Part shown: positions 45,305 through 62,162 of the stretch, piece by piece
How the letters are laid out: each line of letters opens with the position of its first letter
How positions within the stretch are numbered: position 1 is the stretch's first letter
Source of the DNA: Strix aluco
Lineage: Eukaryota; Chordata; Aves; Strigiformes; Strigidae
Direction of reading: 5' to 3'
Assembly (NCBI RefSeq): GCF_031877795.1
Contig: NC_133946.1
Coordinates: 8,407,144 to 8,471,143 of the forward strand
DNA length: 64,000 nt
Notes under the pieces: model-generated
What the model was told of the DNA's origin: nothing
Database searches by the model: none
The model's input: only the letters and a program-made list of their open reading frames with translations
Made by a program: the position numbers and the translations under genes

Positions 45305-53581
<8,277 letters not shown>

Positions 53582-55177: not shown

Positions 55178-55313
55178 TCAAACAGAATGAACATTTTTCT
55201 CCTTTGCCATGGGAAAAAGGTTGTATTGCTTGGTCCAGTCAACTACATTGGGTTTGAACATACCAAAGCAACTGCACTGAAAAAAGTCCGCAAGATTCTG
55301 GAAGCATCCAAGA
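55178..55313 (-). CDS. ZDHHC13: ZDHHC13 last coding exon
   Basis: Acceptor [25 protein letters not shown] and [13 protein letters not shown], ending KNVHSV and TGA (55,178-55,180). Confidence 0.95.
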
Positions 55314-58300
55314 CTGAAAAGGAGAGAAATATCCATTAACAAACCTAACTAAAGAAGACTGCAAGCATCAAAAATACACGTTCACTGTGAGACAGTACTT
55401 AAGATATAAGGCTGTCAATGAAGACAGCTCTGGGAGAAGAAACCTAAGGATAGTTGTCTATCGAGCATTATTCCTTTGTTGAACTTTTACAACCTGTACT
55501 ACATTAAAGACTGAGAGCAGATTAAGTTCAACTCAAATATTTAAGAGTTAGTACGATCTCATCTGTTAACACACATGAGGAAACATGGACTTCTACTGTA
55601 ACAGGGAAACTGTGGTACTAATTTCTCTACTGAGCTAAATGCTGCAAGAGAAGTCAGAAAGGGAGCAGTTCATACCTTAGTTCTCTTTCTGAACCTACAG
55701 AATGGGCTCAGAGATTGATGAAAACATTGGACAACACCCCCTCACACCCAAAATTGGGTCTACTGATTAATGCTATGGACTGATTTTGGCACATCTTTTT
55801 CCTATGTGCACAGCCATGCAGAAAGAACACCACTAGCTCTCATGCTGGCTGTTTGTTTCCTAGGGCAAGAGTTCTCAGCAAAGAAAATGAGGTCCATTTC
55901 CTCGTTTTAGCACAACTCATAACATGCACGAGTAGCACATCCATAGACCACTGTTTTTTTGCATTAATGAAGTAGCGAAGCGAATCCACACTGAAAAGAT
56001 ACAGGCTTAAAACATGCTATTCATTAATACTCACTTGTATGGAGTTCTCCTGAGCGAAACAGGATGCTTAGAAGATTTTCTCTGTATCAGGAGGTTCATT
56101 CTTTCATGCGAGGTCAATCCCAAGAATGCAATCTTACCAAAAGGAAAATGTAAGTAATGGTTAAAACATGACGATCACAAATTAAAATTCTAAAAGACAC
56201 TATTGAGAAGGGAGGGAGGGGAAGAGGTTGGCCATATCTAATAAGTAACTACTGCCACAATTATTGACTGAAAAGTATGTTTTTAAGTGTTACTTGGACT
56301 AAACCAGAACCCAGCAAGCTGTAACATTAATGCTTCCACTGAAGAGGCAGGCTTAATCAGGATGACCATAAAGACTGTACTTTTAGAGATGTCTGTAGAA
56401 GTATAAGATCTATCCCCCGAAAAAGACAAAACAGCTTAGCAAAAAAGATAAAGGAGATGTCAGAGACTCAACAATAACTTCGCTGTTTTCTTGATTCCAT
56501 GTCTTCTTTCACCAAGTTTCACAATGAAATTTAAGGGTTTTTTCCTGCATTTTTGCTTACTTAGTCCTTTGTCCATCTCCTTGGGTTTTTATAATCAACA
56601 TAAATCTTATAGGCCCTTATAAATGGCTGCAAGGGTCCTTTGCTGAATGACATGCTAAATATCATAAAGCAGGACATTTACAAATGACTGTGTATGAAAT
56701 ACAGTAATTAATTGTAAACATCCTACCTAGATCCTTTTTTTTCCCCCCCAGCACGGTATCTCAGTGCCTTGGACATTACAGAAATCTAGCAGTACACATA
56801 ATTGTGGGTTTGTTTTTTTTTTTAAATAAAATGTAAAACAAATCTTTAGCTCAGTATGCTTCACACATATTCCCACAACACATCTTTCCTAAAACCTGCT
56901 AAACAAGCTGTTTCCTAGATGTTTTAAGACAGTTCTTCTCAAGCTTGTTTGCACAGCCAAGCTCTCTCCGAGAAAAACATAAACAAGAAATTTGACAGTC
57001 CTCATCAGGATAAAATCCGGGTCATATATTTTTATTGTAGCAATGGGATTTCATACCATCTAGTGACCCACTACTGAGCTCTACCACAGAAATTTTGGTT
57101 TGGGACTAATTGTGCTATTAAGCTTTTGTGCTGTTTTGGGGGCAGTAATACCAGTTCTATTAGTCAAATAAGTTTATTGCCTTTAAATATACCTTTTTAT
57201 AGGTCTAGTATTTTCAATGAGTAGTAAACCCAGAACTCAGTTATAGGAATGATTTGCAGACTGTGATCCTACTTTTAACACTGGAATGTTGAGTGCACAA
57301 GTACCCATGAAACTTCAAGGGCTGCCCTGAGATTTAAGAAAAGCACCTAGATATGAATATTAATTAGTCGAGGAAAGCAGGCACAAAGTTCTTATTACAG
57401 CAAATCATCTAGGAAAAAGTTTTAATACGATAACTCTTAAGGAGAGGAGCATAAACTGAAGCAAAATAATACCTGATAAAGCTGAACCATCAGCCACAAT
57501 GAAGCCCATACAGTATGAAAACAGGCTACTGTGAAGATGTAGAAAACCCAGGGAGAACAATGTATTATCTGTGTGAAGTACGTCCATGCTCCATCTTGAT
57601 GATAACTTGTGATGCAATGATTTGACCAATCTGACAAGATACATAATCAGTTAATCACGTTTTTAATTTAGGCCGCTTAAGAAACGAACAAAGATTATAT
57701 GCATAGTATGAATATTACGTAGCAATATGCTCTAAAAATACCATGTTTGATATATCATGTTCCCACTTACAAGCACCCACATCGACATGTGACTGCTTGC
57801 TATTCTGGCTGCATAATCTTCACATCATATGTTCATAATCCACAACAGGAACATTCAAGGCACTGGGCTAGGCACTTTTTTATAGTTAAATAGTGATGCT
57901 GAAATAAGCCATCATCTCTCATTGTCAAGACTTCCAAAATTTTGCTTCATGCTTATTTGTAATTTTAGGACAGAATATATCATTTCTCTTAAACATCACC
58001 ATCAACAAAAGACCACATTACGGTGACAATGCCAAGAACGCAGTATTTTACCACTATTACATAGACATAAACTGGAATGTCCAACTTCTGTAGATTTATT
58101 AAGAGATACTTAAAGCCTACCACATGTGTCTAACCTATAAAAAAACCCCAAACAACTAAATGCAGAGCAACTTTTTTTTGCCTCTATGTCAGTGGAACAA
58201 TAAAGAGGTTTTCCTCCCATGTTCCTTCACACACAAAAACCAAAAAAAATAATATGCTTTTTGTATATGTAAGACTACTACTGAAACACAGGAAAGCAAC

Positions 58301-61300
58301 TCATGTTCACAAGGGTCCTGTGTCCTCCACTGCCACAGCTCGCTCACTTTGACTCATTTCAATATAATGTGAAGTGATATAAAATAAAATGAACTCTCTC
58401 TACTTTTTAGTTAAAAGATTAGTGCTATGTTAATTCATTCTCAGAAACTATATTATAAGGGCTCTCCTCCAAGAAATTTCTTAATTTTCCAAAGTAACAG
58501 CTTGGATTTATTAATGAGATACACAGTTCTGCTGTTTTCAAAGTCATCACTACATTAAAAACAAAAGTAAACTTTTGCAAGTGTTCAATATAGATATTTC
58601 TAAATAATAAAATCAATAAAGCCTTTGCAATAATGTATTAACAAACTTTATTTCTACTGCAGTAAAGGGTATCCAGACTAGAACCTGAAACCTGACCTTC
58701 CTCCACACGACTACTGTACTTCTCAATGGACATCCCACTAGAGCTGTATCTTAGTTTCTACTCAACACAAACATAATCAGATATTTGACCAAAGACTCAG
58801 AGATGATATATTTTCATGTAAAGACAGAATTACAAGATAACATCACTGCTGAAATACAGTATCATTTGTGCAGGTATAATTACACTTGCTAAAAATGAAA
58901 TGCTGAAAAATAACAACCATACACGTGCATCCTTGAAAGCTAAATTAAAATAAATTAATGGATACATACACAGAAGAGTTCCGTGAAGCAGCCAGACACC
59001 GGTCATCGTTAGGAAAGACAGGAACAATAGGTAGTAACGATGGTTCCCAACGCCTGTATTCGAGTCAAGGAAAAAAAAAAAAATGACATTTTAAAATCCA
59101 GCAGTATTTGCATTTCCCCTAAAGTCAACAGGAATAAAAAGAATCAAAACCACTTATTATTACCTCTGCTATCCTCAAGAGAGTTTGGCAAGACTGATAT
59201 CCTTCTCAACTTTCTCCTGTAAGCCACCCCAATTGGTATAATAGAATTAATTCTGATAGTGTCAGCCAGGATTTGTCTCCTCTTCAGAGCATGCATTCAG
59301 CTGTTTCAGCTATATGAGGACTAATTATGCAACTAGAACTCTCACCATGCACAGTACAACTGTCTCATATGACTGAAAAATCTAAGCTATTCAATTTGTT
59401 TGACCTTTGTGTGCTTCAGAATTGCACACATATGCATAAACACCCCAGACTTCTGTCAGAGAAACTGTTACAGGAAGATATACAATTATTTTTCTTTAAA
59501 TTACAATCAGTATTGCTCAAAGCTTTGAAACAATATATCAGAAGGATGTCTCACCACCGTGTAAATAGCAAACACTATAAAAGCATTTCCAAGTATTTAA
59601 CATTACAAAAAAGCTACTGGCAAAAGAATTTGCCAAAAATACATTGCTACGGATGTAAAGCTCTAACCTTTCTAACTTGAGCATCACCAGTAATGAGACA
59701 GAAAGGAAGAACAAGGGAGTTTCTCAAAGAACACAAGAACATAAAAAACGCCCTGTGGGGTTATCTCAGTGGTCCAGTTGCTCCACTTCACTGTCTCTAA
59801 CAGTGACAACAGGCAACATCAGCTCAGGAGGACACATGAGCTTGGCCACTTTAGAGTTCACTCTCCTCATCCACAGTTACTGCATAACAATGTCCGTGTG
59901 CATACCTGACGAGTTCTTTCAGTATCTACTTTTGGACACACTGTCCAAAAGTTTGTCTAATCCCTTTCTGAACCTTCTGATACTGCCTTTATCTGCAAAC
60001 CCTTACAGCAGCAAGTTCCAAAATTTGAGTACGTGTCATGTAAAGACATGTTTTCTTCACCAATTTTAAATCCAATCGCTATTCTCACTGAGCCTCCCCC
60101 AGTTCTAGTATGATGTGCCTGGTGAATAACAGTTCTGTGTTCACTTTAGCCATTGTCTTCATTGATGTTTGTTTGGGGTTTTTGTAAAGTCTCAGTCATA
60201 TTCCCTGTTCCTTCTCCTCTCAAAAGTCCTAGACTTTTCAGTCTCTACTCTTAGGGTGACCACCCTTTTATCATTTTAGTTGCCTTCTTCTCTGCCATCT
60301 AATTGGTGTCTCTGTCTAACTGGGCCCTCTGGCACCTATCAGTAACCCCTTCAGCATCAACTGTGTATTCTTATACCAGGTGTGCTCTCTCTCTAAGGAG
60401 ATAAAGGTTATTTCTGCAGCTTTTAAAATATGTGGTATTTTCAGATTTGATGAACACTCACCTATGCACTGTCCAATCCACAGAGAATGCTGATCGCATC
60501 TGGCTACACATGACTCACAAGCAAGGCAATGCATAGATCTCAAAGGCTTCCTTACCTAGTTGAAGATGAAGGAAAAGAATACAGTCATGGCAAAAGCATC
60601 TATTTCGCTCAAAATTTAGAGCATCACCTCATGGGCACTTTCATATTTTGTACAACTACTGTATAAGAGACCTCACGACACAGAACATAGATGAGAACTG
60701 TACATCTTAATTTTACAAAACAAGAGATGGAAATAATTATTATTTTATTCAGATTAGAGTCCAAGGATCTCAAAGCATCTCTTTTGTTGCTGTAAAAGAA
60801 GAAATTTAAGTAAAATAGAACAAACCATGCATGACAAGCAATGAGGAAGTTTTTTATAGCAGTATCGAGTAAAAGCCAGATTCAAAAAGAAAACAAATAC
60901 CAAAGCCTCACTTACAAGACACGATGTGCAAAACGTCCTGAAGTCCAAGCAACCTGCTTCTGCAAGAGCTACAATGTTCTGAAAGACAAAGTAGTCTGCA
61001 CTTACATTTGGATCACATTTTCAGGGGGATCTATGAACATTTTTACACTAGGCCTTCTGCAGTTCACTAGCATTTTGAGTGCCAAGCACCAATAGGACTA
61101 AATACTTGCTACTTAAAAAGGTTCATGAGAAACACAAAACAGCAAAGACTAATGCAACTTCACTCATGCAGGATTATCCAGAAAAGTATCTCTGTGTTGC
61201 CAAAATTAATAAGTAATGTGAATGAAATATTCTTCCAAAAAATGAGATTGTGTTAAGATACAAGGTACCTCTCATATAGTCACACTTCAGAGAGATGAGG

Positions 61301-62162
61301 AGAGCCACCATATTTACTGTTCCTTTATGAGTACTAGGTAAGACAGCATTTACTAGTTCTGTGGTAACAAGGTAAAATTGCAGTTTATTCTCCCTGGCCA
61401 TCTGAAGAAATACACCCTCATGGAGAGCAGTGAGATCACAAACAAAACGCTTCCCTTAATCCACAGGTTGGAGAAACCAAACACTAAATTCTTTACTGAT
61501 CAGTTGGCGATGAGTCTTTTTGCCATTCTACAATAGAGCTAGGAAATGGCATGTCATTTACACGATGCTTAAGCACAAAAATCAAACCATTATACACATC
61601 TTCAATGTATCTGACATAATTTAAGTAATTTCTAGCCTTTGGTATGCCTTACGAGCATGGAGAATTGTAGGAAAGCATTGTGAGTATCTCTTTCTAACCT
61701 TAGACAACTGGAGTGGAAACCATAAAAAATTTATATTTATTAAGTGAAGTTCTATGTGCATTTATATCACAGATAACTTCAGGGAGTCTGTATGATGTTT
61801 GGCCAAAGCTCACATTTCAGTGAGATGGAGGGAAGCAAATCACGGCAGGATTATGAAGTTAAGGAAACAAGCAGTAGGAGGAGAAATTCTCTATGATCTA
61901 TGCTGTTCAATGACAGAGCTACAAACTCTTAGAAGAACTGCTTTCAAGTTTAACAAAGCTGCACATGGTGACGAACAAATCAACCATAAGCTTATGTGTT
62001 ACACCAGGTTATCCCTTCCATTCGTTTTTATGAAATCACCTACCTCTTTTCTTTCTTTTTCTGAAGTCTTAACATATCCAGGATCAGATCTCCAAGTTTC
62101 ATAGAAATAATAAACAAGACCCATCATGCAAAACACGACGGTGATTTCAAGAATTCTATTGG
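55178..62162 (-). CDS. ZDHHC13: ZDHHC13 (HIP14-like), 3' part: DHHC-family S-acyltransferase with DQHS motif
   Basis: Exons in coding order (minus): 62162-62044, 60978-60916, 60555-60462, 59053-58970, 57630-57473, 56132-56035, 55313-55178. They are phase-consistent and give 249 residues plus a partial codon, matching roughly the last 250 of the 622 residues of human ZDHHC13. The family is Golgi/ER multi-pass ankyrin proteins that palmitoylate substrates such as huntingtin. Visible features in order: a membrane segment, DPG motif (RSDPGYVK), cysteine-rich domain ([12 protein letters not shown]), DQHS where the family has DHHC/DQHC, GNHRYY and two membrane segments, then TSHE at the TTxE position. 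Zinc ligands appear intact but the nucleophilic Cys is Ser. The ankyrin repeats and first membrane segments lie beyond the right edge. Confidence 0.95.
56035..56132 (-). CDS. ZDHHC13: ZDHHC13 exon with TSHE (TTxE-like) motif
   Basis: [15 protein letters not shown] through SLRRTPYN; acceptor GGTAAG, donor ACAA|GTGAGT. Confidence 0.95.
57473..57630 (-). CDS. ZDHHC13: ZDHHC13 exon with luminal loop and a membrane segment
   Basis: [18 protein letters not shown] and [17 protein letters not shown], ending LMVQLYQ|GTATTA. Aligns closely with the human TTFKEDGLWTYLNQ region. Confidence 0.95.
58970..59053 (-). CDS. ZDHHC13: ZDHHC13 exon with GNHRYY and a membrane segment
   Basis: [19 protein letters not shown] then VWLLHGTLL; acceptor ATACAG, donor GT|GTATGT, phase 1. 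Confidence 0.94.
59735..60335 (-). repeat. Ancient CR1/L3-like LINE 3' fragment
   Basis: Reading the plus strand: 'gaacataaaaaacgccctgt' and a 'tctctaacagtgacaacagg' part, 'gtctaatccctttctgaacc', 'agttctagtatgatgtg' and 'atcattttagttgccttctt'. These follow in order the complement of the 3' end of an old amniote CR1 family better known from turtles and crocodilians. Heavily mutated; same orientation as ZDHHC13. Confidence 0.75.
60462..60555 (-). CDS. ZDHHC13: ZDHHC13 exon with DQHS active-site motif
   Basis: 31 codons plus one base, [20 protein letters not shown] then [11 protein letters not shown]; acceptor CAACTAG, donor ATAG|GTGAGT. The active-site codon reads TCT (Ser). Confidence 0.96.
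60916..60978 (-). CDS. ZDHHC13: ZDHHC13 exon with CTSC
   Basis: 21 codons, [20 protein letters not shown] and one Leu; acceptor TTTCAG, donor CTT|GTAAGT. Carries the first zinc-ligand pair of the cysteine-rich domain. Confidence 0.95.
62044..62162 (-). CDS. ZDHHC13: ZDHHC13 exon with membrane segment and DPG motif
   Basis: Encodes [20 protein letters not shown], then [15 protein letters not shown]. Donor GAG|GTAGGT at the low end. The acceptor (ATGTAG) has a weak pyrimidine tract, so the start is the least certain boundary. Confidence 0.85.

What the first reader, a model, noticed from the sequence alone, without database searches (positions are those of the whole stretch)
60462..60555. ZDHHC13 active-site cysteine is serine: DQHS in place of DQHC
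The exon reads [13 protein letters not shown]. In human ZDHHC13, as I recall it, the motif is YDQHC, and in other family members DHHC, whose last Cys forms the acyl-enzyme intermediate. Here the codon is TCT (Ser), one base from TGT. Cys-to-Ser at this position is the standard inactivating mutation in the laboratory. The zinc-binding Cys/His residues, the DPG motif and TSHE are kept, and the frame and splice sites are intact, so the gene does not look like a pseudogene. The residue before the motif has become Cys (CDQHS versus YDQHC), so a shifted nucleophile is conceivable. Either this bird keeps ZDHHC13 as a non-catalytic ankyrin adaptor or chaperone, or activity has moved.
Basis: partly seen in the sequence, partly recalled or inferred. 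Interest (0 to 1): 0.85.

Follow-up and report, generated by a model that had tools for sequence, protein, structure and literature searches.

The report
ZDHHC13 without its catalytic cysteine
In this genome, apparently a bird's, an otherwise intact gene for a fat-attaching Golgi enzyme has serine in place of its catalytic cysteine, so the protein probably works as a binding platform rather than as an enzyme.

Summary
On the minus strand, exon 60462-60555 reads [32 protein letters not shown]. Sixteen coding exons, from exon 2 to the stop, join into an open 612-codon frame; exon 1 is only a candidate. The eight zinc-ligand positions checked, Asp453, DPG and TSHE are kept. The exon is found once in the assembly. 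All 15 of 21 other DHHC-family hits whose motif can be read have DHHC, the paralogue ZDHHC17 among them.

Best reading: a natural DHHC pseudoenzyme. The ankyrin domain still recruits clients to a Golgi membrane anchor, and ZDHHC17 does the chemistry. C456S impairs human ZDHHC13, and mammalian ZDHHC13 already binds some clients without acylating them. A fly precedent exists (GABPI, Cys to Ser), so the kind is known; I met no vertebrate or ankyrin-type case in capped searches.

Not settled: read support, fixation, expression, and how many birds share it. No other bird sequence was reachable. Constraint after the change is not shown. A shifted nucleophile at the neighbouring Cys is unlikely.

The parts
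60462..60555 (-). ZDHHC13 coding exon (13th by my numbering) holding most of the cysteine-rich domain and the motif CDQHS
   Evidence: Pfam DHHC hit C16:8467600-8467698
60484..60486 (-). TCT serine codon at the position of the catalytic cysteine (human C456)
   Evidence: human numbering agrees with C456S in PMC12646662
60496..60498 (-). TGC cysteine codon where recalled human ZDHHC13 has Tyr452
62044..62162 (-). ZDHHC13 coding exon 11 (hydrophobic stretch before the CRD, DPG motif)
60916..60978 (-). ZDHHC13 coding exon 12 (first zinc Cys pair, FCTSC)
58970..59053 (-). ZDHHC13 coding exon 14 (GVGNHRYY and following hydrophobic stretch)
57473..57630 (-). ZDHHC13 coding exon 15
56035..56132 (-). 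ZDHHC13 coding exon 16 (TSHE motif)
55178..55313 (-). ZDHHC13 last coding exon, with stop codon TGA
45407..53557 (+). CSRP3-like exons, convergent neighbour that supports orthology
   Evidence: tblastn with recalled human CSRP3

Best explanation
This is the only ZDHHC13 gene found in the genome, and it encodes a DHHC-family pseudoenzyme. Shown by sequence: the acyl-accepting cysteine is serine, while the zinc-binding and structural motifs, the ankyrin domain and the reading frame are kept, and the paralogue ZDHHC17 keeps DHHC. Inferred: the protein folds as a Golgi membrane protein; its ankyrin domain still binds clients that carry the zDABM motif; it cannot form the acyl-enzyme intermediate; it therefore acts as a tether, scaffold or competitor, while ZDHHC17 and other zDHHC enzymes do the acylation.
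For: Ser codon and an open 612-codon frame over 16 exons, GT-AG at the 15 introns between them (I chose the borders to fit GT-AG, frame and homology). Ankyrin domain 78% identical to recalled human ZDHHC13, residues 278-622 58%. Y59, N92 and W122, the counterparts of ZDHHC17 Y67, N100 and W130, are kept; Y67 is in the substrate interaction site by PMC7586229, the other two are recalled as contacts. Polarised against ZDHHC17, bird and human copies have 37 changes each over residues 43-622, so the bird copy is not the faster one overall. ZDHHC17's DHHC exon is 32 of 32 identical to recalled human. All 15 of 21 other PF01529 hits with a readable motif have DHHC. Human C456S impairs CTNND1 palmitoylation (PMC12646662). 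The same change occurs naturally in Drosophila GABPI, judged likely without activity in vivo (PMC4192757) and called non-enzymatic (PMC9374236). zDHHC13 binds SNAP25 and CSP without acylating them (PMC9800311), and acylation-independent roles of the ankyrin domains are argued (PMC4571948). Chains 6bms and 7khm read DHHS in the alignments, so the fold tolerates the change.
Against: One assembly, no reads, no second individual, no other bird, no expression data. If the change is young, the equal-rate result and the kept zinc ligands say nothing about function after it; constraint on the pseudoenzyme is not shown. Mammalian ZDHHC13 is an enzyme for some clients (HTT, ClipR-59: PMC8059564; CTNND1), and mice with a truncated or missing ZDHHC13 are ill (PMC10268010; PMC8059564), so loss of activity might be costly. 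The passage also says the truncation that keeps the ankyrin repeats is worse than the knockout, so an ankyrin module without catalysis could be harmful.
Confidence: 0.6

Rival explanations
1. Sequencing or assembly error, or a rare allele of the sequenced individual; the species has Cys.
For: A single base decides it, and no reads could be examined.
Against: No frame break in 16 coding exons, so local indel quality looks good; this says little about a substitution. The exon is found once, with no second copy that might have been collapsed or mixed in.
Confidence: 0.13
2. Relaxed constraint: ZDHHC13 catalysis has become dispensable in this lineage and the catalytic half is starting to decay, with no new function.
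For: In residues 398-466, 9 of 43 sites identical in human13 and both ZDHHC17 copies are changed in the bird, against 1 of 35 with human as the odd one out; Fisher p=0.014 for 9:1 against the rest, 28:36. ZDHHC17 keeps DHHC and is nearly unchanged.
Against: The excess is not significant when every 64-residue window is scanned (274 of 1000 permutations reach it). The eight zinc-ligand positions, DPG and TSHE are kept. No stop in the frame.
Confidence: 0.14
3. Activity retained by another route: direct transfer from bound acyl-CoA to the client without an acyl-enzyme step, O-acyl-serine chemistry, or a shifted nucleophile (Cys at position 452).
For: [quoted passage not shown] The new Cys sits four residues away.
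Against: Human ZDHHC13 C456S is impaired (PMC12646662). The position of the new Cys is Phe or Met in the four solved enzymes shown, so it probably packs in the core (inference). ZDHHC13 already lacks the first His of DHHC (DQHC; PMC8059564).
Confidence: 0.11
4. RNA editing or alternative splicing brings the Cys back.
For: None found.
Against: TCT to TGT needs C-to-G, which neither A-to-I nor C-to-U editing makes (general knowledge). No second exon 13 was found in the 103.6 kb around the gene (next hit 45% over 20 aa, E=0.32) or in the genome.
Confidence: 0.02

Closest known systems
ZDHHC13 / HIP14L of mammals
   Same: Ankyrin repeats, DHHC domain, Gln in DQH, TSHE, neighbour CSRP3 (neighbourhood in mammals recalled)
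   Different: Human has DQHC with Cys456; this copy has DQHS, and Cys at 452 where recalled human has Tyr
Drosophila GABPI (CG17257)
   Same: Natural Cys-to-Ser in the DHHC motif of a DHHC-family protein, thought to act without transferase activity (PMC4192757; PMC9374236)
   Different: Lacks the ankyrin domain; named as pilot of a glycosyltransferase; not a ZDHHC13/17 orthologue (recalled)
ZDHHC17 / HIP14
   Same: Ankyrin repeats and DHHC domain; recognition residues shared
   Different: Complete DHHC motif; in this genome 564 of 579 compared residues identical to recalled human
Laboratory Ser mutants (chains 6bms and 7khm)
   Same: DHHS in the alignments, solved fold
   Different: Engineered (the DHHC15 mutant by PMC8059564; the other recalled)

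Membership tests
ZDHHC13 (HIP14L) orthologue | Ankyrin repeats N-terminal to a DHHC domain | tested here: met
   Pfam Ank_2 160 bits and DHHC 93.6 bits in one spliced protein
ZDHHC13 (HIP14L) orthologue | Matches ZDHHC13 and not ZDHHC17, with Gln in DQH and TSHE | tested here: met
   383 of 579 (66%) to recalled human ZDHHC13 over residues 43-622; a separate ZDHHC17 lies on C5; residues. No tree was built.
ZDHHC13 (HIP14L) orthologue | CSRP3 as neighbour | tested here: met
   CSRP3-like exons at 45407-53557; human order recalled
ZDHHC13 (HIP14L) orthologue | Six transmembrane helices | not tested
   No topology predictor run
Active zDHHC S-acyltransferase | Catalytic Cys of the DHHC motif | tested here: not met
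   Ser codon TCT at 60486-60484
Active zDHHC S-acyltransferase | Autoacylation and transfer to substrate | not testable with these tools
   Needs an assay
DHHC pseudoenzyme (GABPI-like) | Motif Cys lost while zinc ligands and frame are kept | tested here: met
DHHC pseudoenzyme (GABPI-like) | Maintained by selection as a non-enzyme | tested here: inconclusive
   Bird and human changes equal overall, but the age of the change is unknown and no sister species was reachable

The most novel reading that the evidence does not exclude
A vertebrate lineage has fixed ZDHHC13 as a dedicated pseudoenzyme. The ankyrin/zDABM hub is selected for holding clients at the Golgi, perhaps handing them to ZDHHC17 or competing with it, so the acylation-independent function proposed for mammalian ZDHHC13 exists alone here.
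Probability: 0.35. Interest if true: 0.75.

Novelty: new variant of a known kind. Interest (0 to 1): 0.55.

Why it matters
How far ZDHHC13 works as an acyltransferase and how far through its ankyrin domain is an open question in mammals (PMC4571948; PMC10268010). A natural Cys-to-Ser orthologue in an intact gene would be a ready-made separation-of-function allele, and its spread among birds can be tested directly on public genomes.

Tried and rejected
Second ZDHHC13 copy or alternative exon with Cys: none found (outside this gene the best protein match was 47% identical). Other vertebrate sequence in genome contigs and viral contigs: no relative confirmed. Literature: 'ZDHHC13' with 'DQHS' gave 0 papers. 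Broader searches listed no natural vertebrate Cys-less ZDHHC13, but I saw only titles and abstract starts of capped lists: 20 of 21,957; 6 of 6; 1 of 1; 12 of 98; 12 of 23; 10 of 9,241; 15 of 21; 7 of 7; 15 of 17. Fourteen papers were opened, by passages only, plus one section of PMC8227752; that avian DHHC paper has 0 occurrences of DHHC13 in its held main text. PMC8535770, PMC11722789 and PMC5643561 had nothing of use; PMC5655499 supports the ankyrin-binding view and adds nothing on Ser. The original Swf1/Pfa4 paper is not held; its result is taken from a review.

Faster evolution of the bird CRD looked significant when that segment (403-466) was tested alone (p=0.021; one of six disjoint segments and two larger unions), but not in a window scan (274 of 1000), so I do not rely on it. 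Structure prediction was not run: it takes contiguous translations of held DNA, and a 32-aa exon is uninformative.

Dropped before counts: 6 of the 21 other PF01529 hits, with no readable motif in the stretch fetched. In one search, columns with gaps, and columns where the two ZDHHC17 copies differ, were left out of the polarised counts.

Full report
Observation. The exon at 60462-60555 (minus strand) encodes [32 protein letters not shown]. The codon at the catalytic position is TCT, 60486-60484; the residue before DQH is Cys, TGC, 60498-60496.

Gene model. With the neighbouring DNA of the same contig and a recalled human ZDHHC13 as guide, sixteen coding exons from 71149 down to 55178 (window numbering, extended beyond 64000) join into an open frame of 612 codons and a TGA stop. 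The 15 introns between them are GT-AG with borders chosen to fit GT-AG, frame and homology. Exons 11-17 by my numbering lie inside the window. Exon 1 is unresolved: two candidates were printed, of which MAGGGPA, from 71736 downwards, is the likelier. The donors after exons 9 and 10 (gtttgt, gtactc) look weak. The product matches Pfam ankyrin and DHHC models well above their cut-offs. CSRP3-like exons lie next door, in convergent orientation.

One copy, paralogue with DHHC. The exon is found once in 1.41 Gb; protein searches find no other close copy. ZDHHC17 is on contig C5 with its DHHC exon identical in 32 of 32 residues to recalled human. Of 22 PF01529 hits in the genome, one is this exon; 15 of the other 21, ZDHHC17 included, have a readable motif and all 15 read DHHC; six have no readable motif in the stretch fetched.

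What is kept. Against recalled human ZDHHC13, the zinc-ligand positions C428, C431, H441, C442, C445, C448, H455 and C462 (roles recalled), plus D453, Q454, DPG and TSHE, are unchanged; C456 is Ser. The ankyrin domain is 184 of 235 identical, residues 278-622 199 of 344, and within these the CRD segment 403-466 45 of 64. Counting only sites where both ZDHHC17 copies agree, 37 changes fall on the human and 37 on the bird ZDHHC13 over residues 43-622. In the CRD segment 9 fall on the bird and 1 on human (p=0.021 alone; Fisher p=0.014 against the rest), but a scan of all 64-residue windows with permuted labels reaches this excess in 274 of 1000 cases. So local relaxation is a hint only.

Mechanism. 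The motif Cys carries the acyl group between acyl-CoA and client (review PMC8107437, passages). C456S in human ZDHHC13 'significantly compromised' CTNND1 palmitoylation (PMC12646662, passage). Mammalian ZDHHC13 has the unusual DQHC motif and reduced autopalmitoylation relative to ZDHHC17, yet can palmitoylate HTT and ClipR-59 (PMC8059564, passages), and binds SNAP25 and CSP without acylating them (PMC9800311, passage). Lemonidis and colleagues argue that many neuronal functions of the pair probably come from ankyrin binding, supplementary to or independent of acylation (PMC4571948, passages). A copy without the Cys but with the ankyrin domain, frame and zinc fold is what that view predicts could survive. 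Shown: sequence, single copy, open frame. Inferred: loss of activity, expression, client binding, Golgi location.

Rivals. A base error or private allele cannot be excluded without reads. Early decay cannot be told from a maintained pseudoenzyme without sister species; the two collections searched gave none. Cys-independent transfer is reported in part for yeast Swf1 and Pfa4, but human C456S argues against it here. The new Cys at 452 sits where the four solved enzymes shown have Phe or Met, probably a packing site. The known kinds of RNA editing cannot turn TCT into a Cys codon.

Novelty. A natural Cys-to-Ser DHHC protein is already known, Drosophila GABPI (PMC4192757, passage; PMC9374236, passages). 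A vertebrate, ankyrin-type case was not met in my searches, most of which showed capped lists, and which cover open-licence papers only. I rate it a new variant of a known kind.

Noticed in passing
G000:C10:14542141-14542287 (+) and C10:14585237-14585383 (-); loci L030, L029: Two inverted copies, 43 kb apart, of a DHHC-family exon (98.6% identical over 909 bases, identical 49-residue peptide): a recent inverted duplication or an assembly artefact.
   Followed up: partly
window 45407-53557: CSRP3-like exons on the plus strand, convergent with ZDHHC13.
   Followed up: partly
G000:C5:45752434-45806246: ZDHHC17 is almost unchanged against recalled human (564 of 579 compared residues) while ZDHHC13 is at 383 of 579: a strong rate contrast between the two ankyrin DHHC paralogues.
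   Followed up: partly
window 60462-60555, 60916-60978 and the 3' part of 62044-62162: Nine bird-side changes in residues 398-466 at sites shared by human ZDHHC13 and both ZDHHC17 copies, against one human-side change; not significant in a window scan.
   Followed up: partly
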